A stretch of DNA of 64,000 nt. Origin: Thiosocius teredinicola. GTDB taxonomy: Bacteria; Pseudomonadota; Gammaproteobacteria; Chromatiales; Chromatiaceae. The notes beneath the pieces are model-generated. The model made no database searches. It was given only the letters and a program-made list of their open reading frames with translations, and was not told where the DNA came from. The position numbers were made by a program, and so were the translations under genes. Within the stretch, counting starts at the first letter, position 1. Every line of letters begins with the position of its first letter. The DNA is taken from contig NZ_CP019936.1 in NCBI RefSeq assembly GCF_002009425.1, positions 2,653,297 through 2,717,296 on the forward strand. Reading direction: 5' to 3'. Positions 9,650 to 63,070 of this stretch are shown here, piece after piece.

Positions 9650-9662
9650 GGAGGACTCAGAC

Positions 9663-10292: not shown

Positions 10293-10302
10293 CACTGCCC
10301 TT

Positions 10303-10341: not shown

Positions 10342-10390
10342 CAGCGAGCAAAACCACTTCCGAATGTCCGTGGTTCTGCCGGAGTCGTTA

Positions 10391-11455: not shown

Positions 11456-11484
11456 ACAATCCATTCACAACACAGGGAGTTGCC

Positions 11485-12129: not shown

Positions 12130-12177
12130 ATGTGCATGCTAGGACTGACAACGAACCGATAACCAGGAGCGCCGACG

Positions 12178-42248: not shown

Positions 42249-42261
42249 AAAGTGACCGCCA

Positions 42262-44359: not shown

Positions 44360-44647
44360 ATGACAGCTCCATTGAGCGCCGAGGATACCGAAGCGCTGAT
44401 CATCGAATTCATTCGAAAACATTTGGCAGGTGACGATACGCTGGATATCGATCCTGAAGAGAACCTGCTGGTCGGCGGCCTGATGGATTCGGTTGGCCTG
44501 GTCAGGCTGGTCGCTCACCTCAAAGACGAACTGGGTATCTCCATTCCGCCCCAGGATCTGCTCCCCGGAAACTTCCGCAGCGTGCGGGTGATGAGCGAAT
44601 ACCTGCAAAGCCTGTCGAAACGCCAGGCAACGGCGCCATCAAGCTAG
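44360..44647 (+). CDS. Acyl/peptidyl carrier protein
   Basis: The 95-residue protein from ATG 44360 has a single carrier domain. The phosphopantetheine site is Ser44 in GGLMDSVGLVRLVAHLKDELGISI, with IDPEENLLV in front. It is a stand-alone carrier, as used for aminoacyl or acyl starters in trans. Its stop (TAG at 44645-44647) shares bases with the stop of the convergent adenylation-enzyme gene (CTAG). That enzyme is the obvious candidate to load it. The frame remains open upstream, but the extension shows no domain. Confidence 0.88.
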   Translation: MTAPLSAEDTEALIIEFIRKHLAGDDTLDIDPEENLLVGGLMDSVGLVRLVAHLKDELGISIPPQDLLPGNFRSVRVMSEYLQSLSKRQATAPSS

Positions 44648-46232: not shown

Positions 46233-47384
46233 CTAGCCTTTGACGCCGGCCAGACTGGCTATCAGGTTCCGTTGAATATCCGATGTGCCTGCATAGATGA
46301 CGCCACCGATCGAGTCACGCAGGTGTCGTTCGATCTCGAACTCTTCCAGATAGCCACGGGCGCCGTGAATGCGCACGGCGTCGGTCGCGCACTCAAGCAG
46401 GGATTCGCCGATATGCAGCTTCGCCATCGCGCACTCGATCGACGCATCGAGCGAGGCATCCTTCATTGCCGCCGCCTTGAACATCAGAAGTCGCGATGTC
46501 TCCAGACGAACTCGCATATCCGCAATACGATTGGAAACCGACTGAAAGCCACCTATGGCCTGGCCGAACTGCCGGCGCTCGTTAGCATAGTCCACACATC
46601 GCTCGAAGACATACTGCATTGCGCCGAGATGTCCGGCGTGGATGAAGGCACGCTCCCAGGCGATCGTTTGGGTGAACAGGCTGACACCGACGCCCTCTCC
46701 CCCCAGCAGGTTTTCTTCCGGCACAAAACAATCTTCGAATACCAAGTCGCCCAACAGGTTGCTCCTGGTACCTGTTTTCGCCCGCGGTTCGCCCTGCGAA
46801 AACCCATCAAACGCCGACTCGACGATGAACGCCGACACACCCCACTTTCCTGCGTCCGGATCGGTGCTGGCCAGCACCACGGCCAGGTCGGCAAGCGGAG
46901 CCATGCCTATGTATGCCTTGCGCCCGTTCAACAAGTAGCCGCCATCGACCTTCTGCGCTCGGGTCTGCAGGCTCAGTGCATCCGAACCCGACTCGACCTC
47001 GGTGACACCATGGCTGCCGATCCACTCACCCGAGCACAAGCGCGGCAGGTAACGCTGCTTCTGTTGTTCACTTCCGTAAACCAGGATCGGCTCTTGCACG
47101 CTCCATGTCTGTCCACCCAGCGCCAGGGTCAGGCCGTTGTCGCGGCACCCATAACCCAGGGCCTCCAGCGTCAGTACCGTATCGCTGGCGCTCAGGCCGA
47201 GTCCACCGTAGGCCTCGGGGATATGGCAACGAAGAATTCCGTGATCGCAACACGCCGCCCAGTCGTCCCGTGGAAACGTCCCTTCCCGATCGTGACGTGC
47301 CGCCTCGGAACCCAGTTCCCGCGAGGCGAACTCGCGAATACGCTCACGGCGCTCTCGTTGTTGTGCAGAGAGTTCGAATTGCAT
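46233..47384 (-). CDS. Acyl-CoA-dehydrogenase-like flavoprotein, possible aminoacyl-carrier-protein dehydrogenase
   Basis: The 383-residue protein has a full acyl-CoA dehydrogenase fold: GSHGVTEVESGSDALSLQTRAQKV at the FAD site and NERRQFGQAIGGFQSVSNRIADMRVRLE in the C-terminal helical domain. The classic catalytic Glu of the YEGTS motif is Ala365 here (IYAGTSDIQ). Glu244, in AWERAFIHAGHLG, lies where isovaleryl-CoA and prolyl-carrier-protein dehydrogenases carry their base. The segment YANERRQFGQAIGGFQSVSN is strikingly like PigA/PltE. With the free adenylation enzyme and carrier protein it makes a trio of the kind that turns prolyl-S-PCP into pyrrolyl-2-carboxyl-S-PCP. The exact substrate is inferred. 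Confidence 0.85.
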   Translation of the reverse strand: MQFELSAQQRERRERIREFASRELGSEAARHDREGTFPRDDWAACCDHGILRCHIPEAYGGLGLSASDTVLTLEALGYGCRDNGLTLALGGQTWSVQEPILVYGSEQQKQRYLPRLCSGEWIGSHGVTEVESGSDALSLQTRAQKVDGGYLLNGRKAYIGMAPLADLAVVLASTDPDAGKWGVSAFIVESAFDGFSQGEPRAKTGTRSNLLGDLVFEDCFVPEENLLGGEGVGVSLFTQTIAWERAFIHAGHLGAMQYVFERCVDYANERRQFGQAIGGFQSVSNRIADMRVRLETSRLLMFKAAAMKDASLDASIECAMAKLHIGESLLECATDAVRIHGARGYLEEFEIERHLRDSIGGVIYAGTSDIQRNLIASLAGVKG

Positions 47385-47455: not shown

Positions 47456-50400
47456 GTGGGCGAGCAGCAAACCCCATCATATGAACTGACGCACACGCAG
47501 ACCCAGATTTGGATTGGGCAACGGCTCAACCCCGAATCGCCGCTCTACAACATGGCCTTTTCCTGGGTGTTCTCCACTGTCCTGGACGCCGACACCTTCC
47601 AGGCTGCCTGGCTACGCGTGGTCGCTGGTAACGAGGTGCTGCGTACTGCGGTTCAAGAGGTTTCCGGTGTGCCGCATCGGATTACCCTGGATACCGATCG
47701 ACTGATCACGTCGTTTGTCGACCTGGGTACGAAGTCCGATCCGCTGCAGGCATTCAGCACTTGGAGTGAAGCGCGTAGCACCACCCCTTTACCCTTGGAC
47801 GGTCCGCTCGTCGACAGTGTACTGGTCAATCTCGGTCGCCACGGTTCCGCCTGGTATCTGAATCTGCATCACCTGATCACAGATGCCCGATCCAGCGTGC
47901 TGCTGTACAGACAGGTTGCGCAGGAATACCAAGCCATTCGCGATGGTATCGGTCGACCCACCCCGTTGGCGCCCTACTACCCCACGGCCCGCGCGCTCGC
48001 AGACAAGGTGGACATCACTGCCGACGCCAAACAGCACTGGGCTTCGCGCAGGGACAACGCCCGGCCGGCCGTTCCGTTATACGTAAGCAACGGCTCCGCG
48101 CGAGAAACGGCAAGCACACGTTACACGCTCGAGCTGACAGCGTCGCAGATGCGTGCGATCGACAGGCTATGCGAGGAACAGGGGTTCGCCAGCCTGTCTG
48201 CCGAGCTGTCGCGATTCAACATCTTCGCGACCTTGCTTTTTGCCTGGTTGGGACGGGTGAGCGGCGAGTCTCAGCTGGCCTTCGATGCCCCGGTCATCGG
48301 CCGCCCCGGCACGGATGCCAGGAACGCTCTCGGACTTTTCATCGAGATGTTTCCGTTTTGCGTACAGGTCGCAGAAGACGATTCGTTCCGTTCGCTGGGC
48401 GGCAAATGCCTGGAGGAGAGCTTCCTTTTCCTGCAACACGCGCTGCCCGGGTCAAGCGAACCGTCAGAATCCTCGGCGGCCAGTATCGTCCTCAACTATT
48501 TTCCCGAACCCTTCGGTTACTTTGCCGACATGCACCCGCAAGCCCGTTGGGTACACCCGGGCCACGGCGATAACGTTCATGCCCTGCGCCTGCAGGTCCA
48601 TGACTTTGATGGGGATGGCTGTTTCACCCTGCACTTCGATTTCAACGACCAAGTGCTGCCGGCATACCTGTGTCGGCGCAGCCTCGAACACTTCAACACG
48701 CTGCTCGAGGCACTGCTCTCGGACCCCGACCAGAAGGTTCACGAAGTCGCGCTGCTCACCGCGGATGAATCCGGGATTCTTGAGCGCTTGAACCATACGA
48801 ATGAGCAGCCACTGCCTACCCGAAGTGTTCTCTCAAGGTTCGACGAACAGGTGCAGTCCAATCCGCAGTCGGTTGCGGTCAGGCAGGGACCAACCCAACT
48901 GACATTTCTAGAGCTGTCCGCGCAGGCTGATGCCCTGGCGGCTACTTTGCTCGCGAAGGGCGTCCAACCCGGCGATTTCGTGGCACTGGCTGGCAAGCGC
49001 TCGGTAGAATCGGTCATTGCCATTCTCGCGACCCTGCGCGTACAAGCGGCCTATGTGCCGATCGATAAGAACTACCCCGCCGCACGCGTCCACGCCATGT
49101 TGGAAGATTCCAAAGCGCGCCTGGTGCTGACCGGCGAGACCGGAGTCGCTACCGCACTGTTCAGTCGGGTCGAAACCCTCGACATACAAAGCGGCATCCG
49201 CCAGGGCCGAGCGCTGCAACGCCCTGGCGTAGACCCCTTGATGAGCGACTTGGCCTACATGCTGTATACGTCCGGCTCGACCGGTCGTCCCAAAGGCGTA
49301 TTGATTGAACACCTCGGGCTAGCCGACTACCTGGATTGGGCCGCACGAACCTATGTCCGCGGCGACAGGCTGAGCTTTCCGCTGTTTACCTCCTTGTCTT
49401 TCGACCTGACGGTCACCTCCCTTTTTCTGCCGTTGATCACGGGGGGAGTCCTGGAGATCTATCCCGAACCCGATGGTCCGGTCGACTCGGCAATCATCGA
49501 TGTTGTTGCCGACAACAAGGTTGATTTCATCAAACTGACCCCGTCCCACCTGTCGCTGTTGGAAGATGCAGAGCTCGGCGATTCGAAGATCCGCTGCATC
49601 GTCGTGGGCGGCGAGGACTTCAAGACCTCTCTGGCCGCGAGCATCGACCGAAAACTCCACGGCAAAGCGGAGATCTACAACGAATACGGGCCGACCGAGG
49701 CCGTTGTCGGCTGCGTGCTCCATTGCTTCGACGCGCAAGCCGACCAGGGTCACAGCGTGCCCATCGGCCGCCCTGCCGATCATGTGTCGGTAGACATACT
49801 CAACCACCGGATGACACCGGTACCAGAGGGTGTGCCCAGTGAACTCTGGGTGTCGCGCCCCGGTCTGGCCCGTGCCTACCATAATCAAGAAGCGCTCACT
49901 CACGAGCGTTTCTTACCGCACCCAACCCTAGAGGGACAGAAGCGCTACCGTACCGGCGATCTGGTTCGCTGGGTTTCACCCGGTCGCCTGGAATACCTGG
50001 GCAGGCAAGACCGGCAGCTGAAGATTTCCGGGTTCCGTATCGAGCCGGGCGAGATCGAGGCCGCGCTGCTTTCGATACCCGATATCGAACAGTGTGCCGT
50101 GCTGCAGAGAAAAAGCCTCCCCCATGCCACGCAGCACGGCACGCAACACAGCTGCATCCGATGCGGTCTGTCTTCCGACTACCCCCACGCCCGGTTCGAC
50201 GACGAGGGCGTATGCTCGATCTGCCGTTCGTACGAGACGATCAAAGACCACGCCGCCAGCTATTTCAAAACTCCGGATGACCTGCTGGCGCTGTTCGAAC
50301 GTTCACGAGCAGGAAACACCTCGGCATACGATTGCATGATGCTGTTGAGCGGCGGTAAGGACAGTACCTACGCCTTGTGCCAACTGGTCGACATGGGGCT

Positions 50401-51607
50401 CTCGGTCTATGCCCTGACACTGGACAACGGCTTTATCTCGGACGGCGCCAAAGAAAATATCCGCAAGGTGACCGGACAGCTTGGCGTGACGGTGGAATTC
50501 GCCGGCACGGAGGCAATGAACGCGATCTTCCGCGACAGCCTGGCGCGCTTCTCCAACGTGTGCCAGGGCTGCTTCAAAACGCTGTACACCCTGAGCACCA
50601 ACCGCGCGATCGAGCTCGGTATTCCCGTGATCGTGACCGGTTTGTCACGCGGCCAGATGTTCGAGACCCGGCTGACCGAAGAGATGTTCAAAGACGGTGA
50701 ACGGTCTTGCGAGGAGGTGGATGCCGCGGTCTTGGCAGCGCGCAAAATCTATCATCGCATCGATGATGAAGTCGCACGGTCCCTTGATGTCGGCGTTTTC
50801 CAGACGGATGAGGTATTCGAACAGATCCAGTTCGTCGATTTCTACCGCTACAGGGACGTAGGCTTGGAAGAGGTGCTCGATTACCTGGGGCGCAAAGTTT
50901 CATGGCAACGCCCCAAAGATACCGGACGATCCACGAACTGCCTGATCAACGACACGGGGATCTTCGTCCACCTCAAGGAGAAGGGTTATCACAACTACGC
51001 CCTCCCCTACAGCTGGGATGTCCGGCTTGGGCACAAGACACGAGAGGCGGCCAACCAAGAACTCAACGATCACATCGACGCCGGCCAGGTCGAGCAGACA
51101 CTGCAGGAGATCGGCTACCCGAGCGAACACCTTTCGGGACAAAACACGGAAAAAAGTGTTCTATGGGGTTTCTACACTGCCGCGCGCGACATACCCGAGG
51201 ACCTGCTGCGCGACCGGCTCAGCAACCTGCTGCCGATAAGTTTTATTCCAACGCACTTCAGAAGACTCGAAGCCATTCCGCTCACGGCTCATGGCAAGAT
51301 CGACCAGGACGCACTCCCGTGGCATGCATACGAGCAGCACGAAACCGGGTATGTCCCACCCGAGGGACCGGTTGAAGAATATCTCGCGCAACGCTGGCAG
51401 GAAGAACTCGAATGTGGCCGGATAGGTGCAAACGACCATTTCTTTCGATTGGGAGGCACCTCACTCAGCGCCATGCGGGTCATGGTCAGCCTGTGCCGCG
51501 AGTTCGACATCGAATTGCCGCTGGAAACCGTGTTCAACCATCCGACGCTGGGCGAACTCGCACGAATCGCAGAAGAGCGCATCCTTACGGATGTCGAAGG
51601 ACTTTAG
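47456..51607 (+). CDS. NRPS module C-A-PCP with a PP-loop ATPase domain inside the adenylation domain
   Basis: The 1383-residue protein starts at GTG 47456. Condensation domain: about 8-440, active-site HHLITDA at 138-144 (final Gly is Ala). Adenylation domain: a3 YTSGSTGRPKG 604-614, a5 NEYGPTE 742-748, a7 YRTGDL 831-836, a8 about 849-868. Its specificity residues read D-L-T-K-V-G-E-V-G, closest to asparagine and aspartate codes. Between a8 and a9 (about 895-1225) sits a complete PP-loop domain: two CxxC pairs (Cys900/903, Cys920/923), SGGKDS at 965-970 and VCQGC at 1035-1039, as in N-acetyl-sugar amidotransferases such as PseA/WbuX. The adenylation domain then resumes, with a10 Lys1281. Carrier Ser1336 lies in RLGGTSLS. 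The product is unknown. Confidence 0.93.
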   Translation: MGEQQTPSYELTHTQTQIWIGQRLNPESPLYNMAFSWVFSTVLDADTFQAAWLRVVAGNEVLRTAVQEVSGVPHRITLDTDRLITSFVDLGTKSDPLQAFSTWSEARSTTPLPLDGPLVDSVLVNLGRHGSAWYLNLHHLITDARSSVLLYRQVAQEYQAIRDGIGRPTPLAPYYPTARALADKVDITADAKQHWASRRDNARPAVPLYVSNGSARETASTRYTLELTASQMRAIDRLCEEQGFASLSAELSRFNIFATLLFAWLGRVSGESQLAFDAPVIGRPGTDARNALGLFIEMFPFCVQVAEDDSFRSLGGKCLEESFLFLQHALPGSSEPSESSAASIVLNYFPEPFGYFADMHPQARWVHPGHGDNVHALRLQVHDFDGDGCFTLHFDFNDQVLPAYLCRRSLEHFNTLLEALLSDPDQKVHEVALLTADESGILERLNHTNEQPLPTRSVLSRFDEQVQSNPQSVAVRQGPTQLTFLELSAQADALAATLLAKGVQPGDFVALAGKRSVESVIAILATLRVQAAYVPIDKNYPAARVHAMLEDSKARLVLTGETGVATALFSRVETLDIQSGIRQGRALQRPGVDPLMSDLAYMLYTSGSTGRPKGVLIEHLGLADYLDWAARTYVRGDRLSFPLFTSLSFDLTVTSLFLPLITGGVLEIYPEPDGPVDSAIIDVVADNKVDFIKLTPSHLSLLEDAELGDSKIRCIVVGGEDFKTSLAASIDRKLHGKAEIYNEYGPTEAVVGCVLHCFDAQADQGHSVPIGRPADHVSVDILNHRMTPVPEGVPSELWVSRPGLARAYHNQEALTHERFLPHPTLEGQKRYRTGDLVRWVSPGRLEYLGRQDRQLKISGFRIEPGEIEAALLSIPDIEQCAVLQRKSLPHATQHGTQHSCIRCGLSSDYPHARFDDEGVCSICRSYETIKDHAASYFKTPDDLLALFERSRAGNTSAYDCMMLLSGGKDSTYALCQLVDMGLSVYALTLDNGFISDGAKENIRKVTGQLGVTVEFAGTEAMNAIFRDSLARFSNVCQGCFKTLYTLSTNRAIELGIPVIVTGLSRGQMFETRLTEEMFKDGERSCEEVDAAVLAARKIYHRIDDEVARSLDVGVFQTDEVFEQIQFVDFYRYRDVGLEEVLDYLGRKVSWQRPKDTGRSTNCLINDTGIFVHLKEKGYHNYALPYSWDVRLGHKTREAANQELNDHIDAGQVEQTLQEIGYPSEHLSGQNTEKSVLWGFYTAARDIPEDLLRDRLSNLLPISFIPTHFRRLEAIPLTAHGKIDQDALPWHAYEQHETGYVPPEGPVEEYLAQRWQEELECGRIGANDHFFRLGGTSLSAMRVMVSLCREFDIELPLETVFNHPTLGELARIAEERILTDVEGL

Positions 51608-51642: not shown

Positions 51643-52710
51643 TCATACTCGCCACAGATGTGCCACGGTCAATGCCGTCGCAGACACCAGCGGTAGCGAT
51701 TGATCAGGCGGTGGCTCGAGCATCATCGACGCCTGCTCGTGAACCACCAGGCGCGCGCCCTTGCGCATCCGTTTGAGCAACAGCGGCAACAAGCGATTGA
51801 CCACGGCAGAAGGAAGAAACAGAAAGACCACGTCTACCCCCGAAAGGTCGGCTTCTTCAATCACCTGGTGACGTATCTCGACGCGATGCTGCAACCCGGC
51901 CCGGTCCACCGACTGCCGGGCCGCGGCCACCATCTCAGGGGCCGCCTCCACACCAACTGCGCGGCAACCGAAGGCCTCGGCCGCGTGGATAACTACCTGG
52001 CCATATCCGCAACCCAGATCGCAAACGGTGTCTTCGGCGGTAACCCCGGCCGCAACCAACAGAGGGCTGACCAGGGACTGCGGAGTACGAAGATAGTCTT
52101 GGTCTTCGAATCCCTTCGTCCCGGTACCGTCTGACTTGCGGATTCTCCTGAGCAATCGCACGAAAGGATAAAGCGCAACGAGTCTTGGCGGCAGCTTGAG
52201 GTAAGCCGCATCGGTCAACGAAGGCCGCAGTGCCGCGTGGAGACAGTTCGGCAGCTGCTCGGACCAGCGCAGCGTGACTCGCGTGGTGTCCTCGTCGAAA
52301 CGGATCAAGGTGATCTGCTTTTGATAGCGTGCAAGCAGAGCCACGGCAACACGGTCGAGCGCAACCCGCGTGCTGAACCCGATGCTGTTCAGCGCCTCGA
52401 CGGCGGCGGCGATATGCTCCACCGGTATGCGGATGCGACAGTGATGAAACTGCTGGGCTCCCCTGGCAAGCAGATCGCTGTCACTGCCCGATGCCTGGAT
52501 GCCTGCCTCGTCGAGCAGGTGCAAGACTTGGCTCTGCAGGTCCAACATTTTTTTCGAGATCGAGCGACAGGCCTGCACAACCTGCTCGAGGCACGCCCGG
52601 TCTTCGGGATCCAGGGGCTCGCTAGCATCCAATGCCCGCAGGGCAAAGTCGAAAGTGTCGCGGGACTGAATTGCCCTCGCCAACTGTCCGCCAAGCGCAA
52701 GATCCTTCAA
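51643..52710 (-). CDS. SAM-dependent methyltransferase with an N-terminal extra domain
   Basis: The 355-residue protein has a C-terminal class I methyltransferase fold: TVCDLGCGYGQVVIHAAEAFGCRAVGVEAAPEMVAAARQSVDRAG is the SAM-binding region, and VDVVFLFLPSAVVNRLLPLLLKRMRKGARLVVHEQ follows. This SAM domain resembles those of histone-lysine or Dot1-like small methyltransferases found in bacteria. The first 200 residues are helical with no recognised family. It overlaps the sulfotransferase gene by 4 nt and is the last gene of the five-gene minus-strand unit from 59960. It may tailor the peptide product; the target is unknown. Confidence 0.83.
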   Translation of the reverse strand: MKDLALGGQLARAIQSRDTFDFALRALDASEPLDPEDRACLEQVVQACRSISKKMLDLQSQVLHLLDEAGIQASGSDSDLLARGAQQFHHCRIRIPVEHIAAAVEALNSIGFSTRVALDRVAVALLARYQKQITLIRFDEDTTRVTLRWSEQLPNCLHAALRPSLTDAAYLKLPPRLVALYPFVRLLRRIRKSDGTGTKGFEDQDYLRTPQSLVSPLLVAAGVTAEDTVCDLGCGYGQVVIHAAEAFGCRAVGVEAAPEMVAAARQSVDRAGLQHRVEIRHQVIEEADLSGVDVVFLFLPSAVVNRLLPLLLKRMRKGARLVVHEQASMMLEPPPDQSLPLVSATALTVAHLWRV

Positions 52711-53612
52711 GCGACACTCCCGCCACCCGGTAGTGAATAATCGACCCGGCGGCAGGCCTCCCGGTAAAGCGCGTCATCCAGGCCTTCGGTCACCCTTTGC
52801 AGCTGCGCCTTATCCAACTGACCGGTACTTTTGACGGGGGCCTCGATCGCTCCGGCATTGTTGCTCTTCCAGGTCTCTTCGTTGGTAATCAGCGATTGAC
52901 TCTCCGCGGCATAGCGCTGCAGAACATCATCCTGCCAATCCAGCCCTAAGGATTCGAACAATCGCCGCGTCACCCGGTCGGGCTCATTCACCAACGCTTC
53001 GTAAACCACGAAATGATGCTGCGGTTCGTGTAGATGTTTGAGGGATACCGCAACATCCTGATTCCAGCGTTCGACGCAGGTATCGATTGCATAAGGCGTC
53101 TTCCAGGCCATCGAGGCCGCGTGCAGCGAGGTAACGACATCCAGGCCGCGGCGAACGACATGCACGAAGTGCGGCTTTCGGCCCTCAGGGAAGAACGATT
53201 CCAGAAACTTCACGTAGTAGAGATGCATGGGTGTCTTTTCAACCCAGCCCGACACCTGCCTGGAGCGCGCGATGTCATCAAGCACAGCCAGCAACTCGCG
53301 CGCCACCTCGCGGGTTCTCAGAGGCCGGAGCAACGCCGGCCGCAGCAGCCGGCCAAGCCTCTCTTGATAGGCCTCTGCCGATTCGGCATCGATCCCCGCC
53401 TCACCGAGAAAAGCTCGTAGCCGCAGCAATGGGCTGTGCCGCAGAAAAGGGAACGGCAGCCGCGGGATGGTTTTGAAATGCCGGCTGAACAGGTGACTCT
53501 CGGGAAACGATGTCAGATCCGGATGGCTTGCCAGCAACGATTGAACCAGGGTCGTTCCTGATCGGGGAGCCCCAACCACGAAGATCCGGTGCTGCATGGC
53601 CGACGGACTCAC
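52707..53612 (-). CDS. Sulfotransferase family protein
   Basis: The 301-residue protein has the PAPS 5'-phosphosulfate loop RIFVVGAPRSGTTLVQSLLASHPDL at residues about 9-33. The 3'-phosphate site region is FVHVVRRGLDVVTSLHAASMAWKTPY, and HHFVVYEALVNEPDRVTRRLFESLGLDW is in the C-terminal half. It would place a sulfate group on the locus product or on a sugar. It overlaps the two adjacent methyltransferase genes by 4 nt each. Confidence 0.88.
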   Translation of the reverse strand: MSPSAMQHRIFVVGAPRSGTTLVQSLLASHPDLTSFPESHLFSRHFKTIPRLPFPFLRHSPLLRLRAFLGEAGIDAESAEAYQERLGRLLRPALLRPLRTREVARELLAVLDDIARSRQVSGWVEKTPMHLYYVKFLESFFPEGRKPHFVHVVRRGLDVVTSLHAASMAWKTPYAIDTCVERWNQDVAVSLKHLHEPQHHFVVYEALVNEPDRVTRRLFESLGLDWQDDVLQRYAAESQSLITNEETWKSNNAGAIEAPVKSTGQLDKAQLQRVTEGLDDALYREACRRVDYSLPGGGSVA

Positions 53613-54385
53613 CCGTCTCCCCGCTTGCGGGCGATCAGCGAAAAGAACGGGCGCATCGATGGCACAACGCGCTCGACCAGACCGGTCAGCCCCGCTCCAT
53701 CTCCACCGCGGTAGATCACCTTCTCCACCTCGAACCCGATGTGTTGCAGAAAATCGACCACCTCTTTGGTGGTGTATTCGCGGACGTGTCCCATATGACC
53801 CAGGGTTTCCAGCTTCTCATACTGCCTGTAAACCCCTGCCGATACCGCATGCCCCTGGTTCTTGAACAACAGGTTGCGAATCCCCTTGGCCGAACGCAGG
53901 TTCGGGGTAGAAATAAACAAACGCCCTTGCGGCTTGAGTATCCGATGCACCTCGCGCAGCGTGAAAATCGGGTTGATGCGCAGGTGTTCAAAAAGCTCGT
54001 TGAACAGTATGGCGTCGAATGAGGCCGCTTCGAAAGGCGTCGTCTCTCGCTCGACATCACATTGCCTGACATCGAGCGCCATGCCACGAATCGCGTCCGC
54101 AAATCGCTGTGGGCCAATATCCAGCCCTGTGACCTGGTAACCGCGAGTCTGTAATGCGGCCGTGAGCAGCAGGGGTATCGCACCGTATTCGAGCACCTTG
54201 GCCGGCGCGGGCACGTGCGCCTCCAGCATCTCCAAGTCTCTCGCCAGGCGATCCAGGTGATGATGGCGATATTCTGCGAACCAGGCCTGCAAGGCATCTT
54301 CATCTGGCGTTATCTGCGTACCGAGCTGCTCCAGCAATCGCCGCAACTCGGCGTTTCCGCGTTTACGCTCGACGTCTGTCAGCAT
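53609..54385 (-). CDS. Class I SAM-dependent methyltransferase
   Basis: The 258-residue protein has the methyltransferase_11/23-type core: AKVLEYGAIPLLLTAALQTRGYQVTGLDIGPQRFADAIRG, DAILFNELFEHLRINPIFTLREVHRILKPQGRLFISTPNL. The C-terminal part has a lid segment YEKLETLGHMGHVREYTTKEVVDFLQHIGFEVEKVIYRG. The glycine-rich loop is EYGAIP and is thus not canonical. It overlaps the NRPS gene by 7 nt. O- or N-methylation of the product is the likely job. Confidence 0.88.
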   Translation of the reverse strand: MLTDVERKRGNAELRRLLEQLGTQITPDEDALQAWFAEYRHHHLDRLARDLEMLEAHVPAPAKVLEYGAIPLLLTAALQTRGYQVTGLDIGPQRFADAIRGMALDVRQCDVERETTPFEAASFDAILFNELFEHLRINPIFTLREVHRILKPQGRLFISTPNLRSAKGIRNLLFKNQGHAVSAGVYRQYEKLETLGHMGHVREYTTKEVVDFLQHIGFEVEKVIYRGGDGAGLTGLVERVVPSMRPFFSLIARKRGDG

Positions 54386-57300
54386 GCGACACCATCCGAC
54401 GTGTTGTTTGCCTGCTCGACCATGTCGCCATTGGCTTGTTGCAGGTACTCAAGCAATCTTTCTGTGGCCATAGCGACATTCGCGTCGATGTGGGGGTCGG
54501 GGATGTCGACCACCTCCAGCGGCCCCAGCAGGTAGGGGCGCAGGGTCGCGGCAGCATTCGTGGAGGTTTCTTGTGCATTGAGGATCACGGTTGCAGCATG
54601 AATGTTCCGCGGTCGATAGTTGCTCTGCAAGCGGAACCGCTCCACCCGCACATCGGCGTGCAGCAATTCAGCACCCAAGGATAAACCCAGGGCTTTGCGC
54701 ACCCGTGCATAGGCGACCTGCACACGCCGCCATAGCCGCATCCTGATCAATCGCGAAAAATGCCTATAGGGTCGCAGGGTCAACGGATTGTTGTCGCGCG
54801 CGATGTGGATCAACTTCTCGCCCGCCGACATCTCGCCCAGCGATCGACGCAGGTTGTGCAGCTGGAACTTGAACGGACCGATGCGAACATGATCGATCGC
54901 CATCGGCGCTATCAAACAGAGCTTATCTACCGAAACACCCCGTTGCTGCAACTCGGCGGTCAGTTCCATTGCCATCGAGGCGCCAAAGGAATAGCCGGCG
55001 ATTGTGCATGGCTGCCCGGGGAAGCGTCTTTCAACCTCGTCCGCCAGCTCCCGGCCCAGTGCGCGCATCGTGGCCCAGCGTCCCCAGTTGCCTTCGGCGC
55101 GCAGACCGACGCCGCGCAAGCCATACACCGGTCGCTTGTCCTTGAACTGTCTTGCCACGGCATCCGAGAAGAAATGTGGGATACAGAAAATCAGCGGATC
55201 GCCGGACCAGGCCGGCTGAATGGGAAAAAGGTGGCGATAAGGCACTGCCGAAGCAGTACTTCCCTGCGCGACGCGTTTGGCCAGTTCACTGACCGTGGGA
55301 TTCTCAAACACATCGGCCGCGGTCAGCCGCACGCCCATGTCGCGTTCGATTGCGGCAATCATGCGGATTACCAGCAAGGAATGCCCGCCCAGCCGAAAGA
55401 AGTTGTCGGTCACCGAAACCGTCGGAATCTGCAACAACCCCTGCCATAGCGAAACCAGCGTCTGCTCCGTGATATCGAAGGGTACGGTTTCCGCAACCTG
55501 GGATTGGTCGTGTGTCAAAGGCCAGTTCTGCAGCTGCCGGGTATCCACCTTGCCGTTCGGCAATCGCGGCAGGGATTCCATGAACACGATCCGGGCCGGC
55601 CACATATGAGCCGGCAACTTTTCCGCGACGACCCGGTTCAACACCGCTTCTTTTTGCGAGCTTGCGGATTCCACAAAGGCCACCAGCTGCTGCTCATCCT
55701 CGCCAGCGACTGAACGCGCCACGACGGCAGCCGGCCTTCCCCCGGAGGCCTGATAGAGACAGTTCTCGACCTCGCCGATCTCAATGCGGAAACCGCGCAA
55801 TTTGATCTGACCATCGTCCCTTCCCAGAAAGTCCAGGCGACCTTCTGCATTCCACGCCATCCGGTCACCGGTGCGGTAACGGCGCTCATGACTCTCGAAA
55901 ACCTCGAACCTGTCGAGCTCCGAGGCATAGCGTGCGCTGGTAAGGTCAGCCCGGCGCCAGTAGCCCGACGATACGGTTGGCCCGCTGACCCAGGCCTCGC
56001 CGGGAAATCCTTTCGGCACCCGTCTGCCAAACCGGTCGAGAAGCTCGATACATGCCCCGGGTATCGGGCAGCCGATGTCGATGTGCTGCTCAGCCGGTGT
56101 GCGCATGAACTCACGCACGCTGGACCAGACCGTCGCTTCGGTCGGCCCATACTCGTTGAACAGGCGCGTCGACGGCAACAGCTGAAGATGCTTGTTCAGC
56201 AGACCTGCCGGGCAGCTTTCACCCGCCACGACAACCGCCTCCAGTGCGAGTGAGCGGTGCTCAAGAAAGTCGAGCAGATAGGTATACAGAGAGGGCACAC
56301 AGAGCAAGTGGGTGACCTGTTGTTCTTCAATCAACTCTGCGAGCAAGCGCGGATTATGCAACTGTTGTTCGGTGGCGATGACCAGTGTGCCGCCCGCGGC
56401 CAGGGTCCAGAAGATGCCGGCAACCGAGCTGTCGAAGGCGACGCTGGGAATCAACAGAAAGCGCGCGGCGCGCGCCCCGTAAACCTGGCTGCGTGCATCC
56501 GTGCTTGCCGCAAGGTTCCGCTGCGAGATGACGACCCCCTTGGGATGCCCGGTGGACCCGGATGTATATAACAGATAGGCGGTGTCGTCCCCGTTGGACG
56601 CAAAGATCTCCGCATTGATCCGAGTATCGACAGGCAGGCTTTCGACAGACAAGCCATCGACAAGCACCAGCGGCGCAGCCGTGGCAGGCAACCGCGCCTG
56701 CAAGTTGGAGGTCGTCAGCACCGCTGCGACATCCGCATCCTCGAGCTGGAATGCATTCCTGGCAGATGGATAGGACGGATCGAGCGGCACGTAGGCGGCC
56801 CCGGCGAAATGCGTGCCGAGGATACCGGCAAGCAGCCAGGGCGAGCGCTCAACAAACAACCCCACGTGGTCACGATGACCGACATCCAGCGCACGCAGCG
56901 CACGAGCAACGGATACGCTCGCTGCGATCAACCTTTGGTACGTCCACGCCTGCCCTTCGCATACCAGCGCAATCGCATCGGGAGTATCGAGCCCAACGTG
57001 CAAAATTCGCTGTGGCAACAGCCGTGTCTGCGATTCGAGTTCCGGCCCTGTCGACAGGATGCGCAGCGCCTGTTGCTCTTCAACACCCAGCATGCGGACA
57101 TCGAGAACCTTGCGCCCTGCATCTTCGACGACGGAGCAGAGCAGTTCCTCGTAGTGGCCTAGCAGACGGCGGATCGAGCTCGTCTCATACAGCCCAGTTT
57201 TGAACTCCACGCCGAACTCCAGGGTGTGATCTCCTTCCGAGACGAACAATGTCAGATCGAACTTGGAGCAGCCCAGGTCAAGCTCGACCGGTTCGAGTTG

Positions 57301-58479
57301 CAGCCCAGCCAGGAGCGGAGGCTGAGACACGTTCTGGTAAACGAACATTGCCTGAAACAGCGGGTTGCGTGTCGTATCCCTTAACCCGGGCAGTACCGCT
57401 GCCAGTTCATTCAATGGCACAGCGGCATGTGCAATGCATTCGTTGAGCAGCTCGTTGAACGCGGCGAGTGACTGCTCAACCGACAACGTTTCGTCGACTG
57501 CCGTGTACACAAGCAGCGGATTGAGAAAGTAGCCGAGCATCTCCATGCTGGCCGCATGCGTTCGCGTGGCTACCGGCGTGGCAAATGCCACTCTCTGACC
57601 ATCGGCATATCTTTGCAGCAGCAACTGGAAAGCGAAGGCGTAGACGGCGAAGGGCGTTACACCCGCCGCCGCCGCGAATCGCCGGACATCGCGCTTCAGC
57701 GGGTCGTCTGGCACGTGCCTGAGCAAGCGCCCGTCATCGTTGAGCCTTCCCACCTGCCGCTCTATCGGCAGCTTCAAGTTATCCGGGGGCGGCGTCAGTT
57801 TTTGCAACCAGAACGCCCGGTCATGCGCTCGCTTGGCGTGGTCGCTTTTCTGCTGCCAGTACACGTAATCGTCGTACTGCAGGTCACATGCCGCTGCCTC
57901 GGGCGTGCCTCCGTTGTATGCCGCAGCCAGCTCAAGCCAGAACTGCCCAAGGGACATCTCATCCATGATGATGTGATGCACCGCGAGAAGCAGAACGCCC
58001 ACCTGCGCTTGTTCATCTGCCAGGACGTCCATCCGTACCAGAGGGCCGGTCTCGAGATCAAAAGGCTCCCGGGCCAGGCGTGTGGCGGTCGCCACCTGGT
58101 TCTGTTCGTCGATCGCATGAAATCCCACTTGCAGGTCTTGGTGCGGGCGGATGACCTGCTCGGCGGTGTCCGCATGCGCGCTGAATGTCGATCGCAGGAT
58201 GCGATGGCGCGCCACCAGGCGATTGAACGAGGTTTGTAATCTCGGGATATCCAGCGCTCCCCGGAAACAGTAGGCGCTGGCGAGGTTATATGCGGGGGAT
58301 TCCGGCCTCACCTGATGAGCAAGCCACAGGCCATGCTGCAGACCGCTGAGGTAAGCCTTGCTGTCCCCGGGACGCACCGTCATCCCAGCCTGGGCTGACG
58401 TCTTGCCCGCTTTTGCGCGCTTCAACGCGATCGCTTCGCGCAGTCTCGATGCCCTGTCTGCGTTCCCCTTGTCTGTCAT
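54379..58479 (-). CDS. Terminal NRPS module C-A-PCP-TE
   Basis: The 1366-residue protein has four domains. N-terminal basic segment RLREAIALKRAKAG (about 12-25) may be a docking helix. Condensation: about 44-460, active site HHIIMDE 168-174 (the last Gly is Glu). Adenylation: a3 YTSGSTGHPKG 638-648, a5 NEYGPTE 775-781, a7 YRTGDR 868-873, a10 PNGKVD with Lys977; specificity residues D-S-A-L-V-A-E-V-W, not a code I can assign. Carrier: Ser1034 in RLGGHSLL. Thioesterase: Ser1164 in GYSFGA and His1330 as a likely triad member. It would add the last residue and release the chain. It overlaps the flippase gene by ATGA and is coupled with the methyltransferase gene. Confidence 0.94.
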   Translation of the reverse strand: MTDKGNADRASRLREAIALKRAKAGKTSAQAGMTVRPGDSKAYLSGLQHGLWLAHQVRPESPAYNLASAYCFRGALDIPRLQTSFNRLVARHRILRSTFSAHADTAEQVIRPHQDLQVGFHAIDEQNQVATATRLAREPFDLETGPLVRMDVLADEQAQVGVLLLAVHHIIMDEMSLGQFWLELAAAYNGGTPEAAACDLQYDDYVYWQQKSDHAKRAHDRAFWLQKLTPPPDNLKLPIERQVGRLNDDGRLLRHVPDDPLKRDVRRFAAAAGVTPFAVYAFAFQLLLQRYADGQRVAFATPVATRTHAASMEMLGYFLNPLLVYTAVDETLSVEQSLAAFNELLNECIAHAAVPLNELAAVLPGLRDTTRNPLFQAMFVYQNVSQPPLLAGLQLEPVELDLGCSKFDLTLFVSEGDHTLEFGVEFKTGLYETSSIRRLLGHYEELLCSVVEDAGRKVLDVRMLGVEEQQALRILSTGPELESQTRLLPQRILHVGLDTPDAIALVCEGQAWTYQRLIAASVSVARALRALDVGHRDHVGLFVERSPWLLAGILGTHFAGAAYVPLDPSYPSARNAFQLEDADVAAVLTTSNLQARLPATAAPLVLVDGLSVESLPVDTRINAEIFASNGDDTAYLLYTSGSTGHPKGVVISQRNLAASTDARSQVYGARAARFLLIPSVAFDSSVAGIFWTLAAGGTLVIATEQQLHNPRLLAELIEEQQVTHLLCVPSLYTYLLDFLEHRSLALEAVVVAGESCPAGLLNKHLQLLPSTRLFNEYGPTEATVWSSVREFMRTPAEQHIDIGCPIPGACIELLDRFGRRVPKGFPGEAWVSGPTVSSGYWRRADLTSARYASELDRFEVFESHERRYRTGDRMAWNAEGRLDFLGRDDGQIKLRGFRIEIGEVENCLYQASGGRPAAVVARSVAGEDEQQLVAFVESASSQKEAVLNRVVAEKLPAHMWPARIVFMESLPRLPNGKVDTRQLQNWPLTHDQSQVAETVPFDITEQTLVSLWQGLLQIPTVSVTDNFFRLGGHSLLVIRMIAAIERDMGVRLTAADVFENPTVSELAKRVAQGSTASAVPYRHLFPIQPAWSGDPLIFCIPHFFSDAVARQFKDKRPVYGLRGVGLRAEGNWGRWATMRALGRELADEVERRFPGQPCTIAGYSFGASMAMELTAELQQRGVSVDKLCLIAPMAIDHVRIGPFKFQLHNLRRSLGEMSAGEKLIHIARDNNPLTLRPYRHFSRLIRMRLWRRVQVAYARVRKALGLSLGAELLHADVRVERFRLQSNYRPRNIHAATVILNAQETSTNAAATLRPYLLGPLEVVDIPDPHIDANVAMATERLLEYLQQANGDMVEQANNTSDGVAC

Positions 58480-59960
58480 CGTCGGCTCTCAGAAGCCACC
58501 GACGGCTTGCCGCTGATCAGCAACCGGATCAGCCTGTCTTCCACACCGGGTGGGCGCCCCTGCAGCCGCCACAAACCATACTGTGTGATCACGTAAACCC
58601 CTGCTCCAACAATCGTCTTGATCCACAAGGCAGACCATGCCCCCGCGGATGAAAACAGGGGCAAAGCAATCATTGCATCCAACAGGAAGACCGCGCCAAC
58701 CATGACCAGCGCTGAAACAAAGGGGCGCAAGGCATGCGAGAGGATCTCGGCAAATCCGATACCGAGTAACCGCTGCAACAGCGCATAGTTGAGAAACACG
58801 AACACCACACCTGCCGCAACGATGCCCCACACGGCCCCGGGCAGGCCGAAATAGATCGTCCCTAGGGTAAAGGCTGCGATATGTACCACGCCGTAAATCA
58901 CGCCTGCAAAAAACAGCAGCCGCGTTTCACCCAGGGCCAGCATACAGGGCTGAACCACCGAGAAGGTCGCACGCATACCCAGCAAAGGAACCAGGACGAC
59001 GAGCAGCGGCACCGTGCCGACCCAGCGATCGCCCAGCAGAAGTGGCACAAAGTCGTTCGCGATCAAGGCAAATCCAAAGGCGGCCGGCATCGCCAGGCTG
59101 CCTGCCACGCTGAAGGCCTCACCCACGGCCAGTCGCAAGCGTTGTCTATCCGCGGCCATCTCGCTGAAAGACGGGAACAGCACTTGTCTCAGCGGCGATA
59201 TCAACTCCCTGGTGGGCAAGGTGCCTACCCGCTGGGTCATGAAGTAGAGACCCGCATCCGCCATGCCCAGAAACCGGCCAACAATCAATTTATCGGTATG
59301 CATGTAGAGGGTCGACACGATGCTGCTGAGCGTCATCCACCCGGTGAACGAAAAGATATCCTTGAAGCACTTCAGCGAAAACCTAGGCAGGCTGGGCTTG
59401 AGCAGGTAAGACAAGCCGGTCATCACCGAGGTATTGACCAACATGCCGACAATGACGGCCCAGTAACTCTGGTAGATCGCCGCGACGGCTATGGTAACCA
59501 CCACGGACACCACCTTGGCGAGCAAGGTCTGAATGGCCAGCCGCGAATAATCCAGGTCGCGCTCAAACATCACGAAACGAGGGTTGGCCAACCCTTTGAG
59601 GATAGGAACGACTGCCAGCACCTGGAGCAGCTCGACCACCCTCGGGTCGGTCAACACAGCCGCCACACCCAGCATGACCGTGGCGGACAACAAGCCGCGG
59701 ATACACGAAAGCGTCCAGGCCGTGTCGAACAGTTCGCGACTGGTCTCGCGAGTTCTTATCAGTGCGAGTTCGACGTTGAAATCGCTCAGGCCGTCGATAA
59801 TCAGAACCAACGACGACGCCACCGCAATCAAGCCGAAGTCTTCCTGCAACAGGAAGCGTGCGAGTATCACGATCGCGGCGAAATCCAACAATCGCTCAAG
59901 CCATCTGAACGAGTAAAGCCAGCTGATGCTTTTCGCAATCCTGCGCGTAGTATCCGGCAT
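58476..59960 (-). CDS. Wzx/MOP-family oligosaccharide flippase
   Basis: The 494-residue membrane protein has about 12-14 helices. It begins RRIAKSISWLYSFRWLERLLDFAAIVILARFLLQEDFGLIAVA, the typical Wzx/polysaccharide-transport start, and has KCFKDIFSFTGWMTLSSIVSTLYMHTDKLIVGRFLGMADAGLYFMTQRVGTLPTREL in the middle. Such proteins flip lipid-linked sugars or lipopeptides across the inner membrane. As first gene of the minus-strand NRPS unit it suggests the NRPS product is linked to a glycolipid or is exported. Confidence 0.9.
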   Translation of the reverse strand: MPDTTRRIAKSISWLYSFRWLERLLDFAAIVILARFLLQEDFGLIAVASSLVLIIDGLSDFNVELALIRTRETSRELFDTAWTLSCIRGLLSATVMLGVAAVLTDPRVVELLQVLAVVPILKGLANPRFVMFERDLDYSRLAIQTLLAKVVSVVVTIAVAAIYQSYWAVIVGMLVNTSVMTGLSYLLKPSLPRFSLKCFKDIFSFTGWMTLSSIVSTLYMHTDKLIVGRFLGMADAGLYFMTQRVGTLPTRELISPLRQVLFPSFSEMAADRQRLRLAVGEAFSVAGSLAMPAAFGFALIANDFVPLLLGDRWVGTVPLLVVLVPLLGMRATFSVVQPCMLALGETRLLFFAGVIYGVVHIAAFTLGTIYFGLPGAVWGIVAAGVVFVFLNYALLQRLLGIGFAEILSHALRPFVSALVMVGAVFLLDAMIALPLFSSAGAWSALWIKTIVGAGVYVITQYGLWRLQGRPPGVEDRLIRLLISGKPSVASESRR

Positions 59961-59976: not shown

Positions 59977-60396
59977 TCATCGACGCCTGCCTGTAGAACG
60001 GAGGAACAGTGGCATGGGCGAGTCCGACGACTGCATTAGCTTACGGATCAACCCGGCGTACCGGTGATCGAAGATGCGCCTGACCCTGGGTGTGAAATGC
60101 TCTCTCCACTGCCCAGGCATTGGGTTCCTCACATGTGCATCGACACCCACGCGGTCTACTGCGTGTCTTTTTGCCAGCCGGTTGCCGATGACTTTCTCCA
60201 TCCCATCGAACCCATAGAATTTGAATAAATGTTCCATTGCGCCGGGTTCATCGCGAACCCTGTCCTCGTAGCTGAACGCAACGATATCAGGATGCCGCTC
60301 GGGCCACTCCAACATCTGTGTCCGCATAACCCGCTGGTAACAGACCGTCAGGCATTTTTGATAGGAGCGATGTACGAGTTGCACCGGGTAGTTCAT
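59977..60396 (-). pseudogene. Truncated sulfotransferase (C-terminal half)
   Basis: The 139-residue frame matches the second half of a sulfotransferase: PDIVAFSYEDRVRDEPGAMEHLFKFYGFDG and the hallmark AHVRNPMPGQWREHFTPRVRRIFDHRYAGLIRKLM. The PAPS-binding N-terminus is absent; a stop lies five codons upstream of the first ATG. No other frame upstream to about 60700 carries a phosphosulfate loop. It is best read as a degraded gene at the edge of the NRPS unit. Confidence 0.72.
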
Positions 60397-60809: not shown

Positions 60810-61997
60810 ATGACCACACACTCGCCAGACCGTAGGAACCCAGAACTCAAGCTGCCCATCATCCGGTGTTTGAGCTTTTTATTCGCCCTGATGCTGGGTT
60901 CGAACGCCTGGGCCCATGCGACCGCCGAAAACTACGTCTGGATCAACGCGCAGGAAAACCACCTCGAGGGGCGATTCGAAGTACGCCTGGAAGACCTGCG
61001 GAACAAACAGGGGCTCGAAATACCGAACGATTTCGATGCAGCACAACAAGCCGTTGAAGCGTCCGAGCGTGTCGCCCAGCAATACCTGGAACAACATTTC
61101 GCCGTGTCGGCAGAAGGCCGTCCCCTCCCTATCGAATTCGGCAAGACCACCTTGTTTCGGGCGAAGGGGCTTGGCCATTTTGCCCAGTACGCGTTTCGAA
61201 CGGCTGAAGGTGATACCGGTGAAAAACTGACCATCCAGAATACGCTGTTCTTCGAGGACGATCCCTTCCACCGCAGCCTGCTCCTGGTCGAGTACGACAA
61301 GCGCAACGGCAAGGAATACGGGGCCGAGCACACCGCCCTGGTTTTCTCTCCGGCAAACAGCGAACAGGTACTCGACTTCAACGATGTCGGTGGATTGCTG
61401 TCGAAGAAGGCCTTCGTTTGGCAGGGAATGCTGCATATCTGGATTGGCATCGATCACATACTCTTCCTGGTCGCGCTATTGATACCGGCTGTGCTCGTGC
61501 GCAGTGAGAATCGCTGGGTGCCCGTTGACAATTTCAAGGCAACCTTGTGGAAGACCTTCAAGATCGTCACCGTATTCACCGTGGCACATTCCATAACTTT
61601 GGCCCTGGCAGCACTGGAGATCATCCAGCTGCCTTCCCGCCTGGTTGAATCGATCATTGCCGTATCCATCATCGTCGTGGCCCTGAACAACATCTACCCG
61701 ATCTTCCGCGATGGCGTTCTGGGTATCATTTTCCTGTTCGGCCTGTTCCATGGTCTCGGTTTCGCCTCGGTAATGGGCGAGTTGCCGTTCCGCATGCAGG
61801 ATCTCGTCTGGGTCATCGTGGCATTCAACATCGGCGTTGAGATTGGCCAGTTGGCGATCGTTGCAGTCATCGTCCCGGCGATGTACTGGATGCGCACAAC
61901 GTCCTTTTATCGCAACCTGGTACCGCTCTACGGGTCGTTGTTTCTTGCCGCTATCGCCGGTTATTGGTTCGCGGAAAGGGCCTTCGGACTAAGCTGA
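60810..61997 (+). CDS. HupE/UreJ-like membrane protein with exported N-terminal domain
   Basis: The 395-residue protein has a signal peptide (LPIIRCLSFLFALMLGSNAWAH) and a periplasmic domain of about 175 residues. The membrane part begins GMLHIWIGIDHILFLVALLIPAVL, then VFTVAHSITLALAAL, IIFLFGLFHGLGFASVMGELP and AFNIGVEIGQLAIVAVIVPAMYW. The HxxxxDH, HS and FHGLGFA motifs match HupE/UreJ proteins, which are linked to nickel or cobalt uptake. Metal transport here is a family-based guess. Its stop overlaps the start of the next gene (TGATG). Confidence 0.85.
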   Translation: MTTHSPDRRNPELKLPIIRCLSFLFALMLGSNAWAHATAENYVWINAQENHLEGRFEVRLEDLRNKQGLEIPNDFDAAQQAVEASERVAQQYLEQHFAVSAEGRPLPIEFGKTTLFRAKGLGHFAQYAFRTAEGDTGEKLTIQNTLFFEDDPFHRSLLLVEYDKRNGKEYGAEHTALVFSPANSEQVLDFNDVGGLLSKKAFVWQGMLHIWIGIDHILFLVALLIPAVLVRSENRWVPVDNFKATLWKTFKIVTVFTVAHSITLALAALEIIQLPSRLVESIIAVSIIVVALNNIYPIFRDGVLGIIFLFGLFHGLGFASVMGELPFRMQDLVWVIVAFNIGVEIGQLAIVAVIVPAMYWMRTTSFYRNLVPLYGSLFLAAIAGYWFAERAFGLS

Positions 61998-63070
61998 TGA
62001 AGACCCTGCTGATCTCGCATGCAGACCTGAATGCGATCGTCGCCCATGTCGGTATCGATGCCTTCATGGACGAATTGATTCAACGCCTGCAATCGGCACT
62101 GGCCAAGTTTGATCCGGGCATCACCGAGATCCCGGTACGCGATGGTTTTCATTACGAAGCGCCGGTCACGGGACTCATAGAATGGATGCCATTGCTGGAG
62201 CACCAACGCAGCGTGCTGATGAAGGTTGTCGGATACCATCCCAACAGCCCCGGCACCCTGCAGCTTCCTACCATTCTCTCGACACTCAGCAAGTACGACC
62301 CGTCTTCCGGCCACCTCGTGGCGCTGGTCGACGGCACCTTCCCGACCGCCATGCGCACGGGCGCTGCCTCTGCCGTCGCCAGCCTGGCGATGGCCAAGCC
62401 TGAGAGTTCGGTAGTCGGCCTGATCGGGTGCGGGGCCCAGGCCGTCACCCAACTGCATGCGCTCTGCCGGGTGTTCAACATCAGGAAGGTGCTGATCAGC
62501 GATATCGATAGGCATGCGCTGGAGACGTTCGCCAGAAGGATCGACGCGTTCGCCCCCGGCCACCTGAGCGTACAAAAGGCGACAACCGACGACATCGTCT
62601 CGCAGTCGGACATTCTGTGCGTTGCCACATCGGTTGAGATCGGCAAAGGCCCGGTGTTTCAAGACCAGGAGACAAAGCCCTGGCTACATGTCAACGCCGT
62701 TGGGTCCGATTTCCCCGGCAAGATCGAGTGCCCCGTTACTTTACTCGAGCGAAGCTATGTCTGCCCCGACGTGCAGGAACAGGCCATTCGCGAAGGGGAA
62801 TGCCAACAGCTCGCCGCTTCGCGGATCGGCGACGACCTGGTTTCCGTGGTCAAAAACACCCCACGCCATGCAGAACTGCAGGCTCGACTTAGCGTGTTCG
62901 ACTCAACAGGCTGGGCGCTGGAAGACCACGTGGTCATGAACCAGATTCTCGAGTACGCCGAAGACTTCAATATCGGCAGCGAGATCGAGATAGAAAGCGT
63001 TACCTCCGACCCAAGGCACCCTTACGAATTCCTGGCACCATCGAACAAGCACCGCAAGTCCGGATCATGA
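61997..63070 (+). CDS. Ornithine cyclodeaminase / mu-crystallin family protein
   Basis: The 357-residue NAD(P)-dependent enzyme starts at the ATG at 61997 overlapping the hupE stop. The family core is VVGLIGCGAQAVTQLHALCRVFNIRKVLISDIDRHALETF (Rossmann site), LVALVDGTFPTAMRTGAASAVASLAMAKP and DILCVATSVEIGKGPVF...HVNAVGSD. Relatives turn ornithine into proline and ammonia, or serve as alanine dehydrogenases, imine reductases or SbnB-type enzymes. If it makes proline it could feed the free adenylation enzyme of the NRPS locus. That link is only a hypothesis. Confidence 0.86.
   Translation: MKTLLISHADLNAIVAHVGIDAFMDELIQRLQSALAKFDPGITEIPVRDGFHYEAPVTGLIEWMPLLEHQRSVLMKVVGYHPNSPGTLQLPTILSTLSKYDPSSGHLVALVDGTFPTAMRTGAASAVASLAMAKPESSVVGLIGCGAQAVTQLHALCRVFNIRKVLISDIDRHALETFARRIDAFAPGHLSVQKATTDDIVSQSDILCVATSVEIGKGPVFQDQETKPWLHVNAVGSDFPGKIECPVTLLERSYVCPDVQEQAIREGECQQLAASRIGDDLVSVVKNTPRHAELQARLSVFDSTGWALEDHVVMNQILEYAEDFNIGSEIEIESVTSDPRHPYEFLAPSNKHRKSGS

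What the first reader, a model, noticed from the sequence alone, without database searches (positions are those of the whole stretch)
47456..51607. NRPS adenylation domain interrupted by a PP-loop ATPase of the amidotransferase type
Seen: the adenylation motifs a3, a5, a7 and a8 are in order at residues 604-868, then a complete domain with two CxxC pairs, SGGKDS (965-970) and a VCQGC motif (1035-1039) occupies about 895-1225, and the adenylation domain resumes with a10 Lys1281 and a carrier Ser1336. Known: interrupted adenylation domains usually hold methyltransferases, ketoreductases or oxygenases at a2-a3 or a8-a9, and PP-loop enzymes of the PseA/WbuX, ThiI and CtaC kinds adenylate a carbonyl oxygen and replace it by N or S. 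Inference: this module activates Asn or Asp (specificity residues D-L-T-K-V-G-E-V-G) and converts the side chain or thioester-linked carbonyl to an amide, amidine or thioamide while still on the carrier. I do not know of a described case with a PP-loop at this position.
Basis: partly seen in the sequence, partly recalled or inferred. Interest (0 to 1): 0.92.

Follow-up and report, generated by a model that had tools for sequence, protein, structure and literature searches.

The report
Asparagine-to-nitrile domain inside peptide synthetase
A peptide-building enzyme carries, inside its asparagine-activating part, an ATP-using domain of a kind already known to turn asparagine into a nitrile; its conserved cysteines hint at an iron-sulfur cluster that could explain how the domain works.

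Summary
ORF 47456-51607 (+) is C-A-[PP-loop]-A-T, with residues 895-1225 inserted after a8 of an Asn-type A domain. It is no artefact: 45 loci from nine named phyla carry the domain in frame with adenylation-domain and/or carrier sequence.

Gross et al. 2021 (PMC7966384) named this kind of insert AMDH in CysH (cystobactamid), with a homologue in AlbIV (albicidin), and showed carrier-bound Asn becoming beta-cyanoalanine. So a nitrile (or isoasparagine) is likelier than an amide, amidine or thioamide.

Added here:
(2) All 49 sequences have an invariant CxGC...C triad; its CxGC aligns with the [4Fe-4S]-ligating CxxC of LarE. 32 of 35 stand-alone relatives read lack the triad. It could explain why purified CysH was brown, a point the 2021 paper left open.
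(3) The cluster predicts pyrrole-2-carbonyl - cyanoalanine - histidine, with a HupE/UreJ protein nearby in 16 of 20 well-flanked loci, suggesting a metal-related product.

Not done: sequence comparison with CysH or AlbIV; a literature search under the name AMDH.

The parts
47456..51607 (+). NRPS 1, C-A-[AMDH-type PP-loop]-A-T, 1383 aa
47477..48397 (+). condensation domain (Pfam match)
   Evidence: HHLITD in the translation
48839..50134 (+). adenylation core up to the strand after a8; Asn-type signature DLTKVGEVG
50138..51130 (+). inserted PP-loop domain (residues 895-1225, 37 kDa)
50153..50224 (+). zinc-ribbon-like C900-x2-C903...C920-x2-C923
   Evidence: invariant in 49 of 49; zinc on the matching tetracysteine motif of the solved relative (PMC10607449 passages)
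50348..50365 (+). PP-loop SGGKDS
   Evidence: invariant in 49 of 49; SGGKDS was also used to pick the rows
50561..50572 (+). CQGC (C1036, C1039), aligned with the [4Fe-4S]-ligating CxxC of LarE
50939..50941 (+). third invariant cysteine C1162
51152..51355 (+). A subdomain resumes, with a10 Lys1281
51377..51565 (+). carrier domain, Ser1336
44360..44647 (+). free carrier protein, 95 aa
44644..46224 (-). free-standing adenylation enzyme, predicted prolyl-AMP ligase
   Evidence: proline inferred mainly from the neighbouring dehydrogenase
46233..47384 (-). prolyl-PCP-dehydrogenase-like flavoenzyme (best NCBIfam PigA, RedW; both below cut-offs)
51643..52710 (-). methyltransferase
52707..53612 (-). 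sulfotransferase
53609..54385 (-). methyltransferase
54379..58479 (-). NRPS 2, C-A-T-TE, signature DSALVAEVW (His-type)
58476..59960 (-). polysaccharide-type flippase
60810..61997 (+). HupE/UreJ_2 membrane protein
61964..63070 (+). ornithine cyclodeaminase family, possible proline supply

Best explanation
The insert is an AMDH-type domain. The A domain loads L-Asn on the carrier. The PP-loop domain then binds ATP and adenylates the side-chain amide oxygen; loss of AMP gives carrier-bound beta-cyanoalanine (an isoasparagine outcome is possible). The C domain joins it to a pyrrole-2-carbonyl starter made by the free A enzyme, carrier and dehydrogenase, and NRPS 2 adds His and releases the product. 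The invariant CxGC...C triad probably holds a [4Fe-4S] cluster near the ATP site. Shown here: architecture, conservation, fold, signatures, gene context. Shown by others for CysH: Asn to cyanoalanine on the carrier, and loss of that on deleting the domain. Inferred: that this clade does the same, the AMP-imidate step, the cluster, and the product.
Against: No sequence of CysH or AlbIV was compared; membership rests on position, size, motif, substrate signature and the paper's statement about homologues. The CxxC-C PP-loop enzymes described in the papers I saw insert sulfur, so a thioamide outcome cannot be dismissed. Three of 35 stand-alone WbuX-type rows also have the triad, one of them (L110) beside HisH/HisF, so the triad alone does not tell the chemistry. 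The third cysteine lies outside the LarE profile alignment, which ends at column 178; it is placed only by order and spacing (123 residues after the CxGC here, 77-81 in LarE). LarE, ArtA and NAD synthetase tie in the structure list, so fold does not choose the reaction. For AlbIV, phosphorylation rather than adenylation of the amide oxygen was proposed (reported in PMC7966384).
Confidence: 0.75

Rival explanations
1. Thioamide synthase: the [4Fe-4S] triad hands sulfide to adenylated Asn, giving carrier-bound thioasparagine, as LarE and TtuA do on their substrates.
For: Ribbon, PP-loop and CxxC...C in the order of Fe-S sulfur insertases; best profile hit among solved structures is LarE 8cnz (E 2.3e-8, CxxC aligned); hhalign 98.0% with LarE; the three Cys ligands of T. 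maritima LarE in PMC9283937 (passages).
Against: CysH, the studied domain of this kind, dehydrates Asn (PMC7966384). No sulfur-donor family among the 25 listed of 135 families matched by 138 other neighbour ORFs (of 168 that passed my filters); the other 110 families were not shown.
Confidence: 0.12
2. Asn to isoasparagine (aminomutase) is the main outcome.
For: CysH work: isoasparagine-linked products need the AMDH domain, and still occur beside Asn- and cyanoalanine-linked ones when the hydroxylase CysJ is deleted (PMC7966384).
Against: The authors found that dehydration mainly occurs without CysJ, and the direct in vitro product on Asn was -18 Da. No TauD-type hydroxylase among the 20 window ORFs scanned or among the 25 listed neighbour families.
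Confidence: 0.08
3. Amidine formation as in N-acetyl-sugar amidotransferases (one of the first reader's options).
Against: 108 bits against a cut-off of 203; the 49 fused or C-fused domains and the 31 stand-alone rows lie on two sides of a 100/99 branch; no HisH/HisF match among the window ORFs scanned, whereas 6 of 7 plasmid WbuX-type neighbourhoods viewed carry hisH.
Confidence: 0.04

Closest known systems
AMDH domain of CysH (cystobactamid) and its homologue in AlbIV (albicidin)
   Same: about 37-38 kDa PP-loop (SGGKD) insert tied to an Asn-activating A domain; CysH's acts on carrier-bound Asn (PMC7966384; PMC12283262)
   Different: CysH and AlbIV are stand-alone modules (PMC7966384) feeding lines built of para-aminobenzoates (for albicidin recalled); here an elongation module with its own C domain in a predicted pyrrole - Asn* - His cluster. 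Direct sequence identity not measured.
N-acetyl sugar amidotransferase (WbuX/NASAT, PDB 8wex)
   Same: full-length fold, tetracysteine ribbon, PP-loop
   Different: no CxxC-C triad in 32 of 35 stand-alone rows read; usually beside hisH (6 of 7 plasmid neighbourhoods viewed); the window's domain scores under the family cut-off
[4Fe-4S] LarE / TtuA / NcsA sulfur insertases
   Same: PP-loop plus CxxC...C order; CxxC aligned with LarE
   Different: structural matches cover 148-201 of 331 residues in the rows listed; not over the LarE family cut-off; substrate here is an amino acid on a carrier
ArtA nitrile synthetase (auranthine) and QueC
   Different: solved as separate chains, not A-domain inserts

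Membership tests
AMDH-interrupted A domains | inserted in an A domain with Asn signature | tested here: met
   window plus relatives
AMDH-interrupted A domains | about 38 kDa with SGGKD | tested here: met
   37.2 kDa, SGGKDS
AMDH-interrupted A domains | sequence identity with the CysH/AlbIV insert and the paper's seven core motifs | not tested
AMDH-interrupted A domains | -18 Da on carrier-bound Asn | not testable with these tools
   needs protein MS
WbuX/NASAT (TIGR03573) | score over curated cut-off 203.2 | tested here: not met
   108.3 bits, 112.5
WbuX/NASAT (TIGR03573) | full-length fold with ribbon and PP-loop | tested here: met
WbuX/NASAT (TIGR03573) | HisH/HisF partners nearby | tested here: not met
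   no match among the 20 window ORFs scanned, 35176-63998
[4Fe-4S] PP-loop sulfur insertases | PP-loop plus CxxC...C triad | tested here: met
   49 of 49; CxxC aligned with LarE, third Cys by order only
[4Fe-4S] PP-loop sulfur insertases | over the LarE (TIGR00268) cut-off of 150 bits | tested here: not met
   best match anywhere in the window's genome 42.7 bits
[4Fe-4S] PP-loop sulfur insertases | bound cluster and sulfur transfer | not testable with these tools
   needs spectroscopy and assay
QueC | TIGR00364 cut-off 150.3 bits | tested here: not met
   23.3 bits; PF06508 only just over its gathering score, 22.2 against 22
pyrrolyl-carrier starter set (A, dehydrogenase, PCP) | dehydrogenase of the prolyl-PCP type | tested here: inconclusive
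   PigA and RedW are the two best families in 6 of 6 tested, all under the cut-offs

The most novel reading that the evidence does not exclude
AMDH domains are [4Fe-4S] PP-loop enzymes that dehydrate an amide rather than insert sulfur, on the sugar-amidotransferase fold. In this phylum-crossing cluster the domain serves a small metal chelator, pyrrole-2-carbonyl - cyanoalanine - His, whose pyrrole N, two amide N and imidazole N would form an ATCUN-like square, handled by the conserved HupE/UreJ protein.
Probability: 0.25. Interest if true: 0.78.

Novelty: new member of a known kind. Interest (0 to 1): 0.5.

Why it matters
The AMDH domain was reported in 2021 with an unknown mechanism, a brown colour and no recognised Fe-S motif. 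The invariant CxGC...C triad and the amidotransferase/LarE-like fold give a concrete cofactor and active site to test. The gene occurs in at least nine bacterial phyla, and its cluster predicts a pyrrole - nitrile - histidine product, which I have not matched to a known compound (no search by compound was run), beside a membrane protein of a family linked to metal transport (recalled).

Tried and rejected
Rejected: misassembly or chimera (45 loci share the fusion). Rejected: the idea that the architecture is undescribed. L111 (G068), chosen because a match seemed to run from a8 into the ribbon, proved an ordinary C-A-T-TE with no insert. In the window's family (210 genomes, own included) the best match after the window's own was E 4e-23 and partial, so no second fused gene (its list of places was cut at the weak end). 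In a phylum sample (398, own included) three other genomes had hits at E < 1e-15, all partial; two of them (G350, G378) scored over the WbuX cut-off. Five papers were seen as abstract, passages or named sections, none whole. The signature columns for the free A enzyme were inconsistent, so its proline assignment rests mostly on the neighbouring dehydrogenase.

Rows dropped or limited: the genome scan used six exact peptide patterns, so 45 is a lower bound. L030 was lost from the flank count because my ORF caller preferred an antisense frame (44 of 45 counted); the same caller missed the window's own dehydrogenase and carrier, so neighbour counts are lower bounds. The 31 stand-alone rows were picked for having the ribbon, and include two identical pairs; eleven more loci had failed the filter, of which read four (all without the triad, one with an incomplete ribbon) and seven stay unread (L081, L082, L084, L089, L090, L102, L103). 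In one search, 11 of 19 LarE loci and 7 of 20 QueC loci passed my filter, and five stand-alone rows were left out of the NASAT profile; QueC aligned too (96.8% over 93 columns). In some searches, 138 of 168 neighbour ORFs were scanned. The structure alignments used 38 (A3) and 39 (A5) sequences. The tree program flagged several long branches, among them L073, L002 and L004.
Full report
What is there. The gene at 47456-51607 (+) encodes 1383 residues: condensation domain, adenylation core, a 331-residue PP-loop domain (895-1225), the rest of the adenylation subdomain with a10 Lys1281, and a carrier with Ser1336. The insert sits between two subdomain strands that follow a8, in the a8-a9 stretch. 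The 944-residue model (pLDDT 88.1, pTM 0.70) aligns with NRPS modules such as EntF and LgrA, and with AMA4, an A domain interrupted by a methylation domain, at rank 11.

Not an isolated oddity. A scan of one genome per species (84,980) with six peptide patterns of the insert found 45 loci at 48-75% identity, in Acidobacteriota, Gemmatimonadota, Actinomycetota (Acidimicrobiia), Calditrichota, Krumholzibacteriota, Planctomycetota, Verrucomicrobiota, Myxococcota and Pseudomonadota, some only 'uncultured bacterium'. In all 45 the ribbon, SGGKDS and CxGC lie in one frame with adenylation-domain and/or carrier sequence; 41 of 45 also show a condensation HHxxxD upstream, and the frames of the other four run off a contig end. 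Two Rhodobacterales plasmids carry near-identical clusters. A Streptomyces plasmid has a 39% relative fused to the front of a condensation-type domain, beside asnB and, by my reading, an uninterrupted A-T protein. In the window's own family (210 genomes) no second fused gene was seen. In the tree the window's domain joins four Acidobacteriota rows (96/85), then a Gemmatimonadota row (100/98), then the two plasmid copies (96/83); phyla are intermixed elsewhere too. Distances of A core and insert correlate (r 0.81, highest of 999 permutations 0.20, 38 rows): they have travelled together.

Substrate and line. The fused A domain reads DLTKIGEVG in 19, DLTKVGEVG in 17 and a one-letter variant in 5 of 41 readable rows, window included. 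PMC12283262 (passages and section 12) gives DLTKIGEVGK as compatible with beta-cyanoalanine of albicidin beside Asn, and names DSALIAEVWK among His signatures. Other A domains of these NRPS genes read a DS[AV]L[IMV]AEVW form in 23 of 26; two are truncated and one differs; the window's NRPS 2 is DSALVAEVW by my reading. The free A enzyme, carrier and flavoenzyme resemble the prolyl-to-pyrrolyl starter set (recalled from pigment and antibiotic pathways): PigA and RedW are the two best NCBIfam models for the flavoenzyme in the window and in five relatives, all under cut-off. In 20 loci with at least 6.9 kb before and 8 kb after the gene, neighbours are HupE/UreJ 16, free A enzyme 15, flavoenzyme 13, UDP-glycosyltransferase type 12, carrier 9, methyltransferase 2, ornithine cyclodeaminase 2, a further NRPS gene 20; one (L054) has none of the first three. 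Pfam confirmed HupE_UreJ_2 in five of five relatives tried and in the window.

What it does. Gross et al. 2021 (PMC7966384; abstract, passages and one of eight text parts read) named the 38-kDa insert of CysH AMDH, reported 69% identity to the AlbIV insert, and showed Asn on the carrier losing 18 Da to beta-cyanoalanine, not seen when the domain is deleted. In vivo, isoasparagine-linked products also needed the domain. They found numerous homologues, all in A domains with Asn specificity, none linked to a known metabolite. They noted SGGKD, a dark brown protein, no CxxCxxxC motif, and an unknown mechanism. The window's gene fits this kind on the features I could test (membership table).

Mechanism, most likely: Asn loaded on the carrier; [quoted passage not shown] for AlbIV phosphorylation had been proposed); AMP lost to give the nitrile. 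The cluster's role is open: it may polarise the amide or hold the site. Thioamide formation remains the main rival because the CxxC-C PP-loop enzymes described in the papers I saw move sulfur.

Limits. No CysH or AlbIV sequence was compared. The proline, nitrile and metallophore readings are predictions. The ATCUN-like geometry is my inference from the predicted order pyrrole - X - His. I ran no search under the name AMDH.

Noticed in passing
L073:18071-22121: Streptomyces sp. NBC_01216 plasmid: the same kind of PP-loop domain (39%, all seven cysteines) is fused to the front of a condensation-type domain, beside an apparently uninterrupted A-T protein, asnB and an amino acid racemase; a possible trans-acting version outside an A domain.
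   Followed up: partly
L072 and L074: Roseovarius pelagicus and Pseudohalocynthiibacter aestuariivivens plasmids carry near-identical copies of the cluster; many neighbouring proteins share accession numbers, and transposase genes lie near the Roseovarius copy: recent plasmid transfer.
   Followed up: partly
window 39961-44258: Four glycosyltransferases lead into the cluster, and a flippase lies inside it (58476-59960), as if the peptide product or its carrier glycan were exported like a polysaccharide.
   Followed up: no
L002 (G000:C1:3758186-3759091): A second, stand-alone WbuX-like PP-loop protein in the same genome lacks the CxxC-C triad.
   Followed up: partly
L085, L110: Two stand-alone WbuX-type proteins have the CxxC...C triad, one next to HisH/HisF: a Fe-S sugar amidotransferase subgroup may exist.
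   Followed up: no
window 59977-60396 (-): A 139-aa sulfotransferase-like piece (weak Pfam match to positions 151-249 of 255 only), possibly a remnant.
   Followed up: no
window 4002-13509: Upstream Fe-S and molybdopterin proteins: a formate-dehydrogenase-like subunit (6716-9649) and a DsrK-like iron-sulfur protein (12178-13509), under family cut-offs.
   Followed up: no
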